The notes beneath the pieces are model-generated. The model worked only from the letters and a program-made list of their open reading frames with translations, was not told the DNA's origin and did not search any database. The translations under genes and the position numbers were made by a program. This document shows, one piece after another, positions 49 to 7,672 of a stretch of DNA of 47,529 nt. The stretch covers positions 1 through 47,529 of the forward strand of contig JAKFVB010000037.1 of NCBI GenBank assembly GCA_021732405.1, read 5' to 3'. The stretch is from Methylotenera sp. (lineage in GTDB: Bacteria; Pseudomonadota; Gammaproteobacteria; Burkholderiales; Methylophilaceae). Positions within the stretch are counted from its first letter, which is position 1, and each line of letters starts with the position of its first letter.

Positions 49-1425
49 TCAAATTTTCAGTTTTGAATTCGTTTGTTGATTTCCAACAGCTACTTTAGCT
101 TCATGTAATTGAATATTTAAAGTCCTCTCTAGTTCAAGCAACTCCCTCAATCTCTGCTCTGCGATTATTATATCTTTCGGCTCTCTAGCATTTGCTAGGT
201 CTGCAATTGCGTCTTGAATACTCATTTTTACTTGGCCGATAGTGTCTATTAAGCTAACAATTGCGCCGTTTGAAACTGGTGGATTCTTTCTGACACTTGG
301 ATAGGCTTTCTCTCTAATTTCATTTTTTCGTTCTTGTAATTGCTTAATATTAGGTAATTTCGGAGCAAGCTTCTTATCAGGTTTGCCAGTTTGCATAGTT
401 ATTAACGCTTGTTCTATTATTTTTTTGATATCTGTATTGTTTGCCATGGATGGAATCTCCTTCATTATTGTTGTAATTGGCGTTGGTTTTGAACTTGATT
501 TATAGCTTGGTGCTGGCCCGCCAAGTCTGACAGGGCGAGCATTTGAATAAACAGAACTATTGAATGCGGCTCTTTCATTCGTGAGTTCTGTGAGTATCTT
601 CTTTTGATGTTGATATTCTGTATCTGTCAATTTGACGGATACTTTTGCTTTGCGAGAAGCTGCAAGCATGTCGCGGTAGTTTGCATTTTCTTCAAACATT
701 GGTCCTCTTAAGCGTCTGCTTTTTTGATCCCCAGGCAATCTGATTGATATGTAATCTTTACCCTGTCTGTGAATTGAAACGCCAAGCTCTTCATCTAAAA
801 ATTTGCAGAGTTGGGTTCTGTTCTCAATTTTTCCTGAAACGATTGCTTTTTTAACTTCCTTTTCTAACAGTATATTTTTGCGCTGGTCATCCTTGAATTC
901 TGGTGATTTAAGTTTATGGCTAGGTAAAGCAATTTTTAAATTATCTTGCAATACGTGTGCATAGCCCATTTCGTAATTAATCACGCTTGTGAAGCTTTTG
1001 TAAAAATTAATGTTTTTAGTGCCTGGCGGATGAATATTTAGCTGTTTACCCGTGGTTAATTCAACCATTGGGACCACAAAGTGAATCTCTAGATTATCTT
1101 TATCTCTGTGCAAAACAAAAAGAATATTGTATTGATTAATATTCAAGCCTGCAAAAAATGTCTGTTTGAATCTATCAATCAACTTCAGTATTTGCTCTTG
1201 AGTTGGCTGCTCTTCATTCCTGAATGCAATTGCACCTGATACATATTTCCAATCTCTATCAATTGAGTTGATAATATCAATCGTGGTTTTTGGATTGCCT
1301 AAAGCTTCAGGTTTAACAGAACGTAACGCGCCTGTGTGGTCGTAATCATTTAGCAGATAGTTGACTGGGCCTTCGCCACTTGATTTCCCACTTGACTTCC
1401 CAGTTGAAAAGATACGGACTATCAT
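49..1425 (-). CDS. Relaxase / mobilization nuclease (MobA/VirD2-type)
   Basis: Predicted DNA-nicking relaxase that would cut the element's transfer origin and lead the strand into a recipient. The N-terminus has a glycine/serine-rich start followed by PVNYLL, and Tyr23 there is the likely nucleophile. The metal-binding histidine motif is visible as H106-R-D108 with H115 in an IHFVV strand. The C-terminal half (about residues 260-458) is charged and helical, without a recognisable domain. The start overlaps the stop of the mobC-like gene by 4 bases (ATGA), so the two are probably translationally coupled. The serine/glycine/lysine stretch at residues 9-18 is a short tandem repeat (TGKSSGKSSG). 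The family call is firm and the exact MOB class is not. Confidence 0.85.
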   Translation of the reverse strand: MIVRIFSTGKSSGKSSGEGPVNYLLNDYDHTGALRSVKPEALGNPKTTIDIINSIDRDWKYVSGAIAFRNEEQPTQEQILKLIDRFKQTFFAGLNINQYNILFVLHRDKDNLEIHFVVPMVELTTGKQLNIHPPGTKNINFYKSFTSVINYEMGYAHVLQDNLKIALPSHKLKSPEFKDDQRKNILLEKEVKKAIVSGKIENRTQLCKFLDEELGVSIHRQGKDYISIRLPGDQKSRRLRGPMFEENANYRDMLAASRKAKVSVKLTDTEYQHQKKILTELTNERAAFNSSVYSNARPVRLGGPAPSYKSSSKPTPITTIMKEIPSMANNTDIKKIIEQALITMQTGKPDKKLAPKLPNIKQLQERKNEIREKAYPSVRKNPPVSNGAIVSLIDTIGQVKMSIQDAIADLANAREPKDIIIAEQRLRELLELERTLNIQLHEAKVAVGNQQTNSKLKI

Positions 1426-1808
1426 TTAGCCCCCTTTGCAGATTGATATGTATTTTCTGCAAGCTCTTTAATTTGCATAAGCACGAGCAAAGCTTCTTCA
1501 GTAAATGGCTCATTTGTTTTTGAATTAAGGTGACGACTAAATTCATTAAGATTGTTGTCAATTTTATTAAGCTCAAACTGACAAAGCCTGATTGCTTCCA
1601 TGCGCTTGGTCTTTGAATGAATTTCTTTACCACTCAAACCAATTTCACGCATATATTGAGCTAAGTTTGTATAACCAGATCTGTGAGCCAACTCTCTCAA
1701 CTCAACATATTCTTGGTTGCTGGCTTTGATTTCAATCCTTTTTAAACGTCTGAACTCATTACCGTCTGAACCGCATTGACCGTGAGCTAATTTCTTTATG
1801 TCTTCCAT
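1422..1808 (-). CDS. MobC-like relaxosome accessory protein
   Basis: A 128-residue protein with an RLKRIEIKASNQEYVELRE segment typical of ribbon-helix-helix type MobC/MbeC accessory proteins. Such proteins bind near oriT and help the relaxase melt the nic region. The reading frame is open further upstream to 1964. The ATG at 1808 is preferred because it follows a strong AGGAGTG ribosome site at a normal distance, and the upstream residues do not look like protein. It lies directly upstream of the relaxase with a 4-base ATGA overlap. The function rests on position plus general family resemblance. Confidence 0.7.
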   Translation of the reverse strand: MEDIKKLAHGQCGSDGNEFRRLKRIEIKASNQEYVELRELAHRSGYTNLAQYMREIGLSGKEIHSKTKRMEAIRLCQFELNKIDNNLNEFSRHLNSKTNEPFTEEALLVLMQIKELAENTYQSAKGAK

Positions 1809-1849
1809 AACCACTCCTTTATTTTTGCTTTTATAGAGTTGGCATGTAT

Positions 1850-1920
1850 TCCAGGGGCATGGGGAAACCCCCATAATATTATTTACCAAGTTTAGGGATA
1901 AAAATGCGCTTTCCCATTTT
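1850..1920. other. Candidate oriT region upstream of mobC
   Basis: This non-coding stretch just upstream of the mob genes has a tight hairpin, ATGGGG-AAAC-CCCCAT at 1859-1874. About 27 bases further on is the segment AAAATGCGCTTTCCC (1901-1915). That segment resembles the nic core of RSF1010/pSC101-type origins (TAAATGCGCCCTCC) as I remember it. Position next to mobC and the hairpin-plus-core layout are what is expected of an oriT. The nick site itself is inference. Confidence 0.3.
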
Positions 1921-2137
1921 TGAACCCGTATAAAACTTGTTAAATATTGACCTTGCTTTACCAATTCTTATCTTTTAATAAAGCAGAAAATTTCAGCATG
2001 TCAACGCTGTTGTGAATATTATTTTGTTGAGACGTGCCAACTTATTTCTGTTGATTGGATTTAATTCTTTTGAGTGTTACTGATTGAGTGATGTGTTTAC
2101 CTATTGTATTTATTAGATGTATTTATCTATAAACTCA

Positions 2138-2583
2138 CTGAAGGACTTGTTTCACTGCCTTTGCCTTTCCGTGCTTCACACGGTTTCGGCAAAGTCTTAC
2201 CCTAAGGAAATCAATATAAAAAAATTGATTTCACCCGGACTTTACCAAAATGCTAATCACATAGCATCGGACAGAAATAATATTAGTTTTTCTGTTTCGC
2301 AGTTCGTGCGCTAATACGCACAGTTGGAACGGTCTGCTGATTGTCTTCGTTGTGGTTTTCCAACTTAACCCTCCATATATGCTCCGCATATATGGGCATT
2401 CATAGCCACTTTCACCTATCGTCATACCTGTCATCAGGTTTCACTATTTCAGTCGGTGTGCAAACTTTCCTATTGAGCATATCTTCGGCAATTAAATCCT
2501 CAGAGTTTTTGCTACTTATATAAGCTACTGCTGTAACAGCCGAATCGGGAAGATATGGTGATTTACTGAAACAAGTCCTCAGA
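2138..2583. ncRNA. Large structured RNA candidate closed by a long-range helix
   Basis: No convincing protein is encoded here. CTGA-A-GGACTTGTTTCA at 2138-2154 pairs with TGAAACAAGTCCTCAG at 2567-2582: 16 base pairs with one bulged A, enclosing about 412 bases. Inside, many local hairpins are intact. They include CTTTGCC/GGCAAAG with an inner CCGTG/CACGG (about 2158-2195), ATTGATTT-type arms near 2209-2235, ATGCTA/TAGCAT, ACAGAAA/TTTCTGT, GTGCG/CGCAC, CCATATATG/CATATATGG and ACCTG/CAGGT. On the minus strand the loops are A-rich (GTGAAA, GGAAAACC, GGAGGGTTAA), which suggests that strand is the RNA and recalls group II intron domain I. A strong plus-strand terminator at 2669-2696 argues for the opposite strand. 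No domain V, reverse transcriptase or maturase is visible. Confidence 0.55.
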
Positions 2584-2668
2584 AGAAAGGTAAATCAATC
2601 TTGACGCATAAGCCATTCAAGTAAGAGTTAATAAATAAAAATTGAAACGTCAACCCCTAAAAATGCAG

Positions 2669-2696
2669 AAGGGGCAAATTTGCCCCTTTTTCTTTT
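2669..2696 (+). terminator. Intrinsic terminator
   Basis: A perfect 20-base palindrome of AAGGGGCAAA and its complement is followed on the plus strand by TTTTTCTTTT. On the minus strand the T-run is interrupted, so it would work less well there. It lies between the structured stretch and the convergent end of the DUF4116 gene. Confidence 0.75.
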
Positions 2697-2744: not shown

Positions 2745-3479
2745 CTATAATTTTATTCTATTGCTCAATGGAGGGTTAAGATTTTTTGATATTCCATACG
2801 CTAATAGTCTGCCTAGCGAGGCTTGCGAAGTATATGCTGTACCAATTTTTTTGATAAGATCTGCTGAGTATCCATTCACATTCAACTCCTCAAGTGTCTT
2901 TTTTTCCTCCCCAAGATATTTAAGTACTATCTCCCAGTCGTTTTGAAGCTTTTCACTTAAATGGGAAAATAACTTAGTTGAATGCGCGAATGCCTTTCTC
3001 CCAATAGAGTCATCATTCTTCTGAGTAGGAGTGAAATGTTCAAATACATAAGGACTCCAGGCGAATGCTAAATCTCTAATCCATTTTCTTTGACGAAGGC
3101 GACCAGAAACGGCTGACCAAAATAATGCATTTAATTTGCTAGGCTCTGTGGTCAAACAAGCACGAACAATTTTATCGTCATCGCGATGTTTATAATTAAA
3201 ATGTCTAAATGCTAGTGGATTTTTTCTAGCAATATCAAGACAAATTGCAGAGTCGTCTTGAACGTGCTGCGGTAAAGATTCGTAGGTGCGAGGATTGTAT
3301 GCCACGCTATCTACAATAAATTTACGTGCGGTGATGTTGTCATATAACGATGGGCGAATTAAATCAGAGTTTATTTCTTTAATTCTATTTTCATGGTTAT
3401 ATGGTTGAGCCGTAAAGTAAGTTGAATTAGATAGTATTTGGTTGTAATTCTTTGTTACGTATTGGTGTTTAAACTGCAT
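2745..3479 (-). CDS. DUF4116-like protein
   Basis: A 244-residue protein whose middle (about residues 45-150) has the repeated pattern of DUF4116 modules: short helical units such as FIVDSVAYNPRTYESLPQH and ICLDIARKNPLAFRHF, each pairing one day's-length helix with a conserved aromatic. No catalytic motif is visible and the function is unknown. AGGAGAATAAAA precedes the ATG, so the start is well supported. It is transcribed in the same direction as the mob genes but lies beyond the structured stretch. Its upstream region carries the first copy of a motif that also precedes the genes at 4171 and 4315. Confidence 0.6.
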   Translation of the reverse strand: MQFKHQYVTKNYNQILSNSTYFTAQPYNHENRIKEINSDLIRPSLYDNITARKFIVDSVAYNPRTYESLPQHVQDDSAICLDIARKNPLAFRHFNYKHRDDDKIVRACLTTEPSKLNALFWSAVSGRLRQRKWIRDLAFAWSPYVFEHFTPTQKNDDSIGRKAFAHSTKLFSHLSEKLQNDWEIVLKYLGEEKKTLEELNVNGYSADLIKKIGTAYTSQASLGRLLAYGISKNLNPPLSNRIKL

Positions 3480-3655: not shown

Positions 3656-4171
3656 TTAATCAAAATCGGGACTTTCCCATCCGATTAACAGGAACTCATT
3701 TTTGCAAGCCTGTGGATCCGTTAATAATCTATCAATCTCTTTTTTTGCTTTTTTGGATATGCCCTTATTTTTGCGGGCTATCTTCAATTCCTGAATAAGC
3801 CAAGCAAGCTTGTTTGTACTATCGGGATTAAGAAGACTGCGACTAAAGCAAATTATGTGCTCGTCAAAAATTAGCTTAATAGTTAGCACGTTTTCATCTA
3901 GCTCTTTCCCAAGAGGTATAAAACCGATCTCTAAAAATGCTAATAAAATTTTTTGTAAAGATGGTCCATCTATGTAAGAAATTGAAATAAATTTCTCACT
4001 TAATTTTAGATCCAAGGGAATTTCTTCAAACAACTCCTCAATGCAGACAAGTGAATCTACAAGTACTTCAATTTTGTATGGATTTTCCTCATCCCCAAAC
4101 CAAGTTTTTTCAAGTACATTCTCAACCTCAATCATTTGATTAAGCATTTCATGCGTGTTTTTTTCTGTCAT
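3656..4171 (-). CDS. Hypothetical acidic protein
   Basis: A 171-residue acidic, mostly helical protein that I do not recognise. No signal peptide, membrane segment, metal motif or nuclease motif is visible. A basic patch (ARKNKGISKKAKKE, about residues 131-145) stands out near the C-terminus. AAAGGATTATAT before the ATG supports the start. It is divergent from the gene at 4315, and their shared intergenic region carries an inverted repeat and the second copy of the TTTCATGGAT motif, so the two are probably co-regulated. Confidence 0.55.
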   Translation of the reverse strand: MTEKNTHEMLNQMIEVENVLEKTWFGDEENPYKIEVLVDSLVCIEELFEEIPLDLKLSEKFISISYIDGPSLQKILLAFLEIGFIPLGKELDENVLTIKLIFDEHIICFSRSLLNPDSTNKLAWLIQELKIARKNKGISKKAKKEIDRLLTDPQACKNEFLLIGWESPDFD

Positions 4172-5139: not shown

Positions 5140-6320
5140 TTTTTCGGGATTGATTGAGACAGCTTTTCAAAAAGCTCTCGTTTGTTCAGTACTGATATAA
5201 ATATGCTTGCGTCTGCTCCGTCAGCTTCAACGACTAATTTCCCCATTTCCCTAGCAGTTAATCCTTTTACCTCATGATTGAGTAAGTCAACATCAAGTCC
5301 TAGTGTAATGAGTTCATTTACTAGGCTTCCCATTGCTTGGTAGTCATTTGTTAGTTCTGCGATAGCAAAAAACTTATGATTCGCGTTCGCTAATAAGTGC
5401 GCCAATGTTCCACTGAATATAATCTGATTAGATTTATCTAATAGTTCAAAATCTAAATTGATATTTATACCAATAGAAACTAGATACTTAAAAGCCCATT
5501 GGAGGTCTAACTCTTCAAGCGTCTCTGATTTATGCTTAGTAAGAGTGTCCAGTAGCCAAGAAGCAGGGTTGAATTCCCGGGTCAAAAAATGATTAGGAAA
5601 TTCAAGGCTAATTTCTTTAGCTAGGTCTAAATCAAATGCTAATGCAGTATCAAAGTATCCTAATCGTTGATTTTCAGTCACACGACTTTTCCAGTCACCA
5701 TAAATTTCACGTGCTAACTTTGGATTTTTTACGATTGTCCTATTGAATTCATCCAGTGCGTCCAATAGTTTTTCTGCTTCATCTCTAATTTCATCTGAAA
5801 GTACTGGGCGTCTCAATGGGGAATTAGATTTTATGCATAAGATGGTATGGCCATTAATATCCAATTCATCATCAAAGCTATTAAAGAAGCTCACTAACTT
5901 GTTTTCCACAATCATCATTGGGAAATTGATTGTCTCAGAATTTGTATTGTTTAAATTATTAAGCGTTTCAAGCTTGCTTAATCCTTTTGAGTAAGATTCA
6001 TTTGTTGATTTGACGGTTCTTGAGTCAATCCAATCTCTAACTGCACCTACTGAGTATCTAACTGATTTTGGGCCTCTAACGTAGTTTGGACCACCGCCCT
6101 TGACTCTCCATTTTTGTAATGTTGAGTTTGACTCATCAAGCCAATCCGCCAGCATGTCTTCATTAATTAGCTTGGAGTTTGGCAATGAATCAAAATCAAT
6201 ACCTGAGGCTTTATCAATTAGCGATGCAACAGTGTCCAGAATTGCAACTATGTGATTTGCAGTTATTGGAGTATCAGCAGGTAGCTGTTTTAGTTTATAA
6301 AGAAATTCAGGTTGAATCAT
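5136..6320 (-). CDS. Excisionase-type HTH protein with ankyrin-like C-terminus
   Basis: Residues about 51-104 form a helix-turn-helix of the excisionase/AlpA type: INEDMLADWLDES, then TLQKWRVKGGGPNYVR, then the wing VRYSVGAVRDWIDSR. Free-standing excisionases are usually 60-100 residues, so 394 residues is unusual. The remaining 290 residues are helical and end in units resembling ankyrin repeats (GTLAHLLANANHKFFAIAEL and the following segment). The start overlaps the integrase stop by 4 bases (ATGA), so it is co-expressed with int. It is probably the directionality or control factor for excision. The ankyrin call is weak. Confidence 0.6.
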   Translation of the reverse strand: MIQPEFLYKLKQLPADTPITANHIVAILDTVASLIDKASGIDFDSLPNSKLINEDMLADWLDESNSTLQKWRVKGGGPNYVRGPKSVRYSVGAVRDWIDSRTVKSTNESYSKGLSKLETLNNLNNTNSETINFPMMIVENKLVSFFNSFDDELDINGHTILCIKSNSPLRRPVLSDEIRDEAEKLLDALDEFNRTIVKNPKLAREIYGDWKSRVTENQRLGYFDTALAFDLDLAKEISLEFPNHFLTREFNPASWLLDTLTKHKSETLEELDLQWAFKYLVSIGININLDFELLDKSNQIIFSGTLAHLLANANHKFFAIAELTNDYQAMGSLVNELITLGLDVDLLNHEVKGLTAREMGKLVVEADGADASIFISVLNKRELFEKLSQSIPKN

Positions 6321-7672
6321 TGATTAGTCTCAAAAGTTGCAACTTGTGCCAAAAGGAAATCTTCTACATCCTGCAATGCCTTGTGGATTTTAGGAGCATT
6401 TCGCATAAAGTAATGCGCATTTACATCTTGAATAGTATGCTTAAGGCAATAATTTATTATACGTTCGTTAATGTCTAAATGTAGTGCAGCAGTTCCCCAA
6501 GTTCGTCTTAAATCGTGATGTGAAATAAGTTTACCAGACATTTCATACAGGTTTTGGAAGTGAGCTTTTGCATCAGTAGGGATATGACCTGTCTTGCTGT
6601 CTTTATAGTGAAACACAAAGTCGCTTTCTTGTTGATCAAGTTTTCGCCTTTCAAGAATCTCCAAAGCCATTTTAGAAATGGGGAAAGTGTAATCCTCTCC
6701 GTTTTTAGTGTATGTGTAATAAATTTGATTTAATTTAAAATCAACCTGACTCCACTTAAGAGTTGAAATTTCGCTTGACCTTCCAATTTGCAATAAGCTA
6801 AATAAGATGTAATCAGAGGCTACTGGATTAACTTTTTGGTATTCAATTAAAGATTTCCACCAGTGATTAATTTCTGGTTTTTGGAAATCAACCATTCTGG
6901 TCTTAATGTTGGACTTTTTCCAGCGAGCGTATGATGTCAAAACGTCTAAGGGGTTGCGAAAGTCTTCTTCTTTATCTAACTCATCGCGACTAATAATAAA
7001 GTTGTAAGCAGAATTGAGAAATTTAAAAGCAATTTGATGAGTGCGTGCCATTGGTTTTAACTTATCTAAATCAATCCTGGTTGGTTTGGTAATACTGAAT
7101 AAATCAAATCTGCTAAGTACCTCTTGACGAGTAATGCTTCTGAATGGACGTGCAAGCCAATCTTCAAGCAATACTTCTTCTTGAATTGCCCATTTCCCTT
7201 CAACTTTTTTCAGGGGGGTGATTGCTCTAGAATTAAAAAACTTAAAAGCATCGTTAACAGACCGTATAGTGCCGGGCCTACCACCTTTTTGCTTTATAAT
7301 TTTTTCGCTAAGGTACTCTTTCAATAGCCAATCTATAGTTTCAGTATCTGCCTGAATTACTTTTTCTTTGAGAGCTTTTGCTTTCTTGTGTTCTGCATTT
7401 TGATCAATGCCATGAGTTAAATTGCTTAACTCCTTCAATGCTAATTTTCTAGCCTCGTCCAAAGTAAGTGCATTAACTTTCCCAAGCGTTATTCTCTTTG
7501 GTGCTCCGCGATTGATTCGTTTGTAGACTATAAAAGTCTTGGATGTTGCACCGACTCTTAATGCAAACCCTTTTAACTCTGTGTCATAGAAAGTTATCTG
7601 CTTTCCTACATCTGCGTAAGGTAGGTTTTTAATTGAGCTTACAGAGAACTTGAATTGTGTTGTAGTAGCCAT
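6317..7672 (-). CDS. P4-type tyrosine recombinase (integrase)
   Basis: A site-specific recombinase of 451 residues. An N-terminal arm-binding domain of the DUF4102 type spans about residues 10-90 (ITFYDTELKGFALRV, then IVYKRINRGAPKRITLG). The catalytic domain has Arg298 in GRSSEISTLKW, His386 and Arg389 in HHDLR, His412 in CLKH and the nucleophile Tyr421 in AHYF. All core residues appear intact. Its start lies about 155 bases from a tRNA 3' fragment, the usual layout of an island integrase beside its attachment site. The downstream gene is translationally coupled to it. Confidence 0.92.
   Translation of the reverse strand: MATTTQFKFSVSSIKNLPYADVGKQITFYDTELKGFALRVGATSKTFIVYKRINRGAPKRITLGKVNALTLDEARKLALKELSNLTHGIDQNAEHKKAKALKEKVIQADTETIDWLLKEYLSEKIIKQKGGRPGTIRSVNDAFKFFNSRAITPLKKVEGKWAIQEEVLLEDWLARPFRSITRQEVLSRFDLFSITKPTRIDLDKLKPMARTHQIAFKFLNSAYNFIISRDELDKEEDFRNPLDVLTSYARWKKSNIKTRMVDFQKPEINHWWKSLIEYQKVNPVASDYILFSLLQIGRSSEISTLKWSQVDFKLNQIYYTYTKNGEDYTFPISKMALEILERRKLDQQESDFVFHYKDSKTGHIPTDAKAHFQNLYEMSGKLISHHDLRRTWGTAALHLDINERIINYCLKHTIQDVNAHYFMRNAPKIHKALQDVEDFLLAQVATFETNQ

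What the first reader, a model, noticed from the sequence alone, without database searches (positions are those of the whole stretch)
2138..2583. Large structured non-coding element inside a mobilizable island
A 16-base-pair long-range helix with one bulged A encloses about 412 bases packed with intact local hairpins. No protein is supported. It lies between the mobC/relaxase operon and a DUF4116 gene. On the minus strand the loops are A-rich and segments such as GGAGGGTTAA...GGAAAACC recall group II intron domain I, but no domain V, maturase or reverse transcriptase is seen. A strong plus-strand terminator at 2669-2696 leaves strand polarity open. It could be an ORF-less intron remnant or an undescribed large RNA.
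Basis: partly seen in the sequence, partly recalled or inferred. Interest (0 to 1): 0.75.

Follow-up and report, generated by a model that had tools for sequence, protein, structure and literature searches.

The report
New large RNA in mobilizable islands
A roughly 490-base folded RNA gene with no match among known RNA families sits beside the DNA-transfer genes of a mobile genetic island, and a distant relative with the same folded core sits in the same place in another bacterium's island.

Summary
A 16-bp closing helix with one bulged A encloses 412 hairpin-rich bases; both strands fold far better than shuffles (z -6.8 and -6.5). Rfam gives nothing relevant, no intron model even at E 10. A relaxase search led to a sibling island (G099, locus L044) whose 700-base gap before mobC holds a homologue. 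A covariance model built from the window alone finds it (26.6 bits, E 5e-6). In a sequence-only alignment of the 123-base core, 11 of 11 pairs changed on both sides still pair and L044 forms 23 of 26 pairs. G-U pattern and A-rich loops put the RNA on the minus strand, in mobC direction, settling the polarity left open. No protein frame is conserved. It is an undescribed large structured RNA just before an oriT-like site and mobC, not a demonstrated intron remnant. No further credible member was seen in four overlapping genome draws (399, 369, 187, 349 genomes). Function is inferred only: most likely it assists or times mobilization, as sgm-sRNA does in SGI1. A third island (L014) carries an apparently unrelated ~720-base folded element in the same slot.

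The parts
2130..2618 (-). Large structured RNA gene, estimated extent of the transcript (ends inferred, not measured)
   Evidence: Folding z -6.5 on minus; homologue in L044; ends estimated from the promoter-like site and the closing helix
2567..2582 (-). P1, 5' arm of the closing helix (RNA sense)
2138..2154 (-). P1, 3' arm of the closing helix, with the one bulged base
2245..2367 (-). Core shared with L044:6843-6969: helix around a conserved loop (AACCAC..AACGAAGRC..GACCG), two further hairpins, and a stem closed by CCG/UGG
   Evidence: alignment A6, pair table, the count of structure pairs, script, model R2
2478..2557 (-). P2 long stem (CAUAUCUUC/GAAGAUAUG and CGGC/GCCG); a stem lies at the corresponding place in L044
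   Evidence: the sequence alignment there is poor
2194..2244 (-). AAAGUC/GACUUU around a 9-bp hairpin; L044 has AAGC/GCUU around a 10-bp hairpin at the same place
   Evidence: the sequence alignment there is poor
2625..2653 (-). Promoter-like site TTGACG-N17-TAACTC (good -35, poor -10); L044 has TTGACT-N16-TAACTT at 6620-6647
   Evidence: direct reading; not listed by the promoter scans
2667..2696 (.). Nearly symmetric terminator between the DUF4116 gene and the RNA
1859..1874 (.). GGGG/CCCC hairpin followed on the mobC strand by CCCCTGG: oriT-like, between the RNA and mobC
   Evidence: direct reading; the oriT assignment is inferred
1422..1964 (-). MobC/NikA-like mobilization protein (longest frame; probable start near 1808)
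49..1425 (-). MobA/VirD2-type relaxase
2745..3479 (-). DUF4116 protein gene, neighbouring cargo
6317..7672 (-). Tyrosine recombinase (integrase) of the island

Best explanation
The element is a gene for a large (about 490 nt) structured non-coding RNA, transcribed from the minus strand toward an oriT-like site and mobC of an integrative mobilizable island. It founds a family with two members known here. Shown by computation: the fold, the strand preference, the homologue in the corresponding slot of another island, and the absence of a conserved protein. Inferred: the RNA is an accessory of the mobilization module. It would fold around a multi-branched core with one conserved 28-30 nt loop and act through that loop as a binding site for a protein (relaxosome, coupling or helper-plasmid factor) or as a scaffold or timer of transfer, as the differently built sgm-sRNA does for SGI1. 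I put about 0.85 on 'structured RNA gene on the minus strand, new family' and about 0.3 on the mobilization role.
For: Folding z -6.47 on minus, 0 of 100 shuffles as good. Model R2, built from the window alone, hits L044:6844-6962 at 26.6 bits, E 5.3e-6 in 260 kb (24 sources); the next non-self match is 16.7 bits. In the MAFFT sequence alignment 94.5% of cells pair against 77.5% in shuffles (0 of 500 reach it), 11 pairs changed on both sides, slid structures give 31-43%; L044 forms 23 of 26 pairs, shuffled letters reach 19 at most in 5000 trials. Strand: on the minus reading L044 has 5 G-U pairs, 1 A-C and 2 other mismatches, so the opposite reading would give 19 of 26; unpaired bases of the predicted folds are 45% A (window minus) and 55% A (L044 plus) against 34% and 20% on the other strands. 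Same order and direction, RNA - oriT-like region - mobC - relaxase, in both islands, although the neighbouring cargo differs (DUF4116 in the window, type II restriction-modification in L044).
Against: Only two members, so no family-wide covariation statistic; sequence similarity alone was only suggestive. Three inner pairs of the fourth core stem fail in L044. L044 itself folds less strikingly (z -3.48; -3.15). Of 18 distinct relaxase-relative loci scanned with R1, only the window and L044 carry it, so the RNA is dispensable to the mob module or is cargo; L041 and L042 have only about 310-370 nt before mobC. The closing helix is not shown to be conserved. The promoter-like sites are not listed by the scanner and the L044 terminator is at chance frequency. 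The genome search with R2 did not report the G099 copy. No expression data.
Confidence: 0.5

Rival explanations
1. Cis-acting leader: the fold is the 5' untranslated region of the mobC-relaxase transcript and controls it by attenuation or by binding a regulator.
For: Same direction as mobC in both islands; between the RNA and mobC of the window the scan lists only one weak minus-strand terminator-like site (2009-1994).
Against: An oriT-like region lies between; in L044 a terminator-like site (7143-7160 plus T-run) separates RNA and mobC, though at chance frequency; about 490 nt is long for a leader; sibling modules do without it (L041, L042).
Confidence: 0.22
2. Island cargo unrelated to transfer: an RNA gene, perhaps part of a defence or competition module together with DUF4116 and the 171-aa gene.
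For: Cargo of sibling islands includes defence genes (type II restriction-modification in L044; an SMC/AAA ATPase resembling LmuB/AbiLi proteins in L042).
Against: The RNA recurs while the neighbouring protein genes differ; PADLOC has no match for the DUF4116 protein and only a marginal AbiEi match (E 0.023) for the 171-aa protein.
Confidence: 0.25
3. It works as single-stranded DNA: a folded priming or promoter element (sso/ssi or Frpo type) used when the transferred strand enters the recipient.
For: Position beside the oriT-like site; hairpin-rich; the same strand is folded in both islands.
Against: A-rich loops, about 490 nt and a conserved 28-30 nt loop fit RNA better in my judgement; G-T tolerance would fit either. 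The nic site and the transferred strand were not determined.
Confidence: 0.1
4. Remnant of a group II (or circularly permuted group II) intron.
Against: No Rfam intron model matches window or L044 at E up to 10; no maturase among ten window proteins scanned; CP group II RNAs are about 900 nt with D5-D6 near the 5' end (PMC8637638, sections 8-9 read); a decaying remnant would not be expected to keep 11 compensated pairs.
Confidence: 0.03

Closest known systems
sgm-sRNA of Salmonella genomic island 1 (PMC9299015; abstract and passages seen)
   Same: RNA encoded in the mobilization module of a mobilizable island, between oriT and the gene of the nicking protein; its main promoter is given there as ttgacg-16 bp-taatat
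   Different: [quoted passage not shown] no sequence comparison was made here
GOLLD, ROOL and OLE large RNAs (PMC12286853; abstract and sections 4 and 8 read)
   Same: Large, multi-branched bacterial RNAs of poorly understood function with low sequence conservation and helices supported by covariation
   Different: No Rfam match to any family even at E 10 (that these three are in Rfam is recalled); the present RNA sits beside mobC/relaxase genes
CP group II ribozymes (PMC8637638; abstract and sections 8, 9, 14, 17 read)
   Same: Large RNA without an ORF inside, on bacterial chromosomes and plasmids
   Different: About 900 nt with D5/D6 near the 5' end; no such domains found here
Frpo / ssi single-strand promoters of conjugative plasmids (search listing only; otherwise recalled)
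   Same: Folded non-coding element near oriT
   Different: Act as single-stranded DNA; here the evidence favours an RNA strand

Membership tests
Group II intron (canonical or CP) | Intron domains recognised by Rfam covariance models | tested here: not met
   cmscan at E up to 10 on 1800-2800 and on L044:6400-7400: no intron family among 7 and 3 listed matches
Group II intron (canonical or CP) | Intron-encoded maturase/reverse transcriptase nearby (absent inside CP forms) | tested here: not met
   Pfam scan of ten chosen window proteins between 49 and 10931 shows none
GOLLD / ROOL / OLE / other Rfam large RNAs | Match to the family's covariance model | tested here: not met
   (whole window, gathering scores: 0 matches)
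GOLLD / ROOL / OLE-like ornate RNA (works like) | Homo-oligomeric assembly | not testable with these tools
   needs mass photometry or cryo-EM
sgm-sRNA-like mobilization RNA | Encoded in the mobilization module beside oriT | tested here: inconclusive
   lies before the oriT-like hairpin and mobC in the window and before mobC in L044; oriT itself is inferred
sgm-sRNA-like mobilization RNA | Required in trans for transfer | not testable with these tools
   needs a mating assay
Structured RNA family | Compensatory base changes in homologues | tested here: met
   11 of 11 doubly changed pairs keep pairing in the core; two sequences only
Single-strand initiation element (ssi/sso/Frpo) | Acts as folded transferred-strand DNA | not tested
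   nic site and transferred strand not determined

The most novel reading that the evidence does not exclude
Mobilizable islands of this relaxase type carry, in a fixed slot before oriT-mobC, large structured RNAs of more than one unrelated class (window/L044 family; a ~720-nt folded element in L014) that act in transfer: a class of conjugation-associated ornate RNAs that I did not find described.
Probability: 0.18. Interest if true: 0.85.

Novelty: new variant of a known kind. Interest (0 to 1): 0.6.

Why it matters
Large structured bacterial RNAs are rare and several have turned out to be unusual assemblies. One that recurs in the transfer module of mobile islands would make it directly testable whether RNA takes part in conjugative mobilization beyond the SGI1 case. 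The conserved loop gives a defined target for such a test.

Tried and rejected
Direct DNA homology found nothing: plasmids, phages, 61 genomes of which only the window's own matched. In 187 family genomes 147 gave a match at E up to 1, the listed non-self ones all being short (about 17-41 bases), the best at E 3.2e-4 over the terminator at a contig end (the list is cut); I took them as chance. Rfam gave nothing or sub-threshold matches that I took as chance. The DUF4116 protein has no tblastn match in phages or plasmids, the 171-aa protein none in plasmids. A protein frame in L044 or the window was rejected. The idea that the 13-mer is a guide or exon-binding site was rejected as chance. Conservation of the closing helix in L044 was looked for and not shown. 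A whole-length structure-weighted alignment of window and L044 was poor outside the core; the other helices match only by order and place. Sequence-only comparison of window and L044 was merely suggestive (3, 7 and 30 of 300 shuffles at least as good under three scorings; 20 of 300 under another); the covariance evidence decided it.

Search for more members. Model R1 (window + L044) was run on order 399, class 369, family 187 and phylum 349 genomes, with overlap. Besides G000 and G099 the matches listed scored 15-31 bits: 8 at E up to 0.1, 2 at E up to 5e-4, 1 at E up to 5e-4, 0 at E up to 1e-4. I looked at the reading frames around five of these eleven: L068, L069, L070 and L080 lie in open frames of genes, L081 straddles the end of one; the other six were not followed. 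R2 was run on 7 whole genomes: it did not report the G099 copy and gave one 13.7-bit match in G689, not followed. IMG/VR pattern scans: 17 stretches, 0, 0, 4; by eye none showed the flanking helix. R1 was rerun on 13 of those 17 and on the 4, best 13.0 bits; the four left out (L054, L056, L058, L061) repeat flanks seen in others. A relaxase scan of IMG/VR gave 11 pattern stretches and no relative. The L014 element has no match in plasmids, phages or the 26 relatives searched with its own genome.

Folding z-scores of the corresponding slots are not specific: L013 -4.87, L015 -5.02, L011 -3.94 and L012 -3.26 also fold well, I suspect from terminators and oriT hairpins, while L041, L042, L043, L045, L046 and six coding controls lie between -2.0 and +0.7.

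Full report
What is in the sequence. A coarse scan of the first 8 kb in 450-base windows (12 shuffles each) put this region and its left flank, which holds the oriT-like hairpin, at the top. Rfam at gathering scores gives no hit in the whole window, and with permissive filters up to E 10 seven matches in 1800-2800, the best E 0.07 on the terminator, which I take as chance.

Surroundings. On the left are a NikA/MobC-like protein and a MobA/VirD2 relaxase; on the right a DUF4116 protein, three proteins without a Pfam family, and a tyrosine recombinase. I read this as an integrative mobilizable island whose left end is cut by the contig. An oriT-like GGGG/CCCC hairpin followed by CCCCTGG lies between the RNA and mobC; similar hairpin-plus-CCCC stretches precede mobC in L041/L042, L012 and L011. 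Relaxase relatives were found in 8 of 200 order genomes including the window's own, 6 of 187 family genomes including its own, and 5 loci in GTDB contigs.

The homologue. In the sibling island of G099 (relaxase 43-45% identical over its first 290 residues) the slot before mobC is 700 bases long and holds a hairpin-rich stretch in the mobC direction (z -3.48). Its core aligns by sequence alone with the minus strand of the window element. The pair table shows a conserved loop of 28-30 nt, AACCAC(CA)AACGAAGRC..GACCG, inside a helix with two doubly compensated pairs, then a hairpin with three, a hairpin with four, and a CCG/UGG-closed stem with two. Counted formally: 94.5% of cells pair against a shuffled mean of 77.5% (0 of 500), 11 pairs with changes on both sides, slid controls 31-43%. 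L044 forms 23 of 26 pairs with letters on both sides; random reassignment of its letters reached at most 19 in 5000 trials; all 11 doubly changed pairs still pair. Three inner pairs of the fourth stem do not hold in L044, and three pairs of the first helix fall on gaps. The structure was drawn mainly from the window, but the CCG/UGG pairs and one U-G/U-A pair were noticed by comparing both, so the count is slightly favoured. To avoid circularity I built a model from the window alone: it finds L044 at 26.6 bits, E 5.3e-6 in 260 kb, next non-self match 16.7 bits. E-values of these short calibrations are rough.

Strand. The folded strand is the window's minus strand. In L044 the common structure contains 18 Watson-Crick pairs, 5 G-U pairs, 1 A-C and 2 other mismatches on this reading; unpaired positions of the predicted folds are 45% and 55% A against 34% and 20% on the opposite strands; and both members carry a TTGACN-N16/17-TAACTY promoter-like site at the start, although its -10 part is poor and the consensus scan does not list it. 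The terminator at 2667-2696 is nearly symmetric and probably ends the DUF4116 transcript (inferred).

Further helices. Outside the core, stems occur at corresponding places in both RNAs: a P2 stem, two small hairpins, a P5 hairpin, and an AAG..CUU-closed hairpin at the 3' side (letters checked; placement by eye); the sequence alignments there are poor and I do not count them as covariation. The closing helix has no statistically supported counterpart in L044.

Not a protein, not an intron, not a guide. No frame is conserved; the 110-aa frame in L044 has no family above cut-off and no relative in plasmids. No intron model matches either member. The 13-nt complement to the DUF4116 gene is within chance.

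Distribution. With R1, only the window and L044 match strongly among 18 distinct loci around relaxase relatives (19 sources, two of them the same place; seven of them with 1.5-kb flanks only, two cut by contig ends; the third listed match, L046, has 12.1 bits). A rerun without filters on six of them gave at most 11.1 bits. Four overlapping draws of 399, 369, 187 and 349 genomes gave strong matches only in G000 and G099. These searches use strict filters and a coarse first look, and a run with R2 did not report the known G099 copy, so absence is weak evidence.

A third island. In Andreprevotia chitinilytica (L014) the stretch before mobC holds a ~720-nt element with z -4.84 (20 shuffles; -4.74 with 60 shuffles), a TTGACA-N16-TATAGG promoter-like site at 2700-2727 and a T-run after a stem at the end (read), only sub-threshold Rfam matches and no R1 match inside it even without filters. 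If it is an RNA gene, the slot attracts large RNAs of different descent. This is a lead, not a result: intergenic slots of some other islands also fold well.

Mechanism. The best guess is an RNA that serves mobilization, by analogy of position with SGI1's sgm-sRNA, deletions of which abolish transfer (PMC9299015, abstract and passages seen). The recurrence at the same place beside differing cargo supports a link to the mob module; its absence from L041, L042 and others speaks against necessity. Plain cargo, a cis leader of mobC, or a single-strand DNA element remain possible, in that order.

Literature. Searches for such an RNA beside mobC or relaxase genes (listings of the best 8-15 papers each) showed nothing that describes it; the library lacks most subscription journals.

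Noticed in passing
L014:2700-3500: A ~720-nt A-rich, hairpin-packed stretch without long frames, with promoter- and terminator-like ends, before mobC of an Andreprevotia chitinilytica island; no Rfam family, plasmid, phage or relative-genome match; not detectably related to the window RNA.
   Followed up: partly
window 2601-2653: Inverted TTGACG...CGTCAA arms (2601-2606 and 2648-2653) around the promoter-like site of the RNA, possibly an operator.
   Followed up: no
L042:4071-6728: 884-aa SMC/AAA ATPase-like protein resembling LmuB/AbiLi defence proteins as cargo of a sibling island.
   Followed up: no
L044:4551-6612: Type II cytosine methyltransferase and restriction enzyme as cargo directly before the homologous RNA.
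   Followed up: no
window 3656-4171: 171-aa protein without Pfam or NCBIfam family; marginal PADLOC AbiEi match (E 0.023).
   Followed up: no
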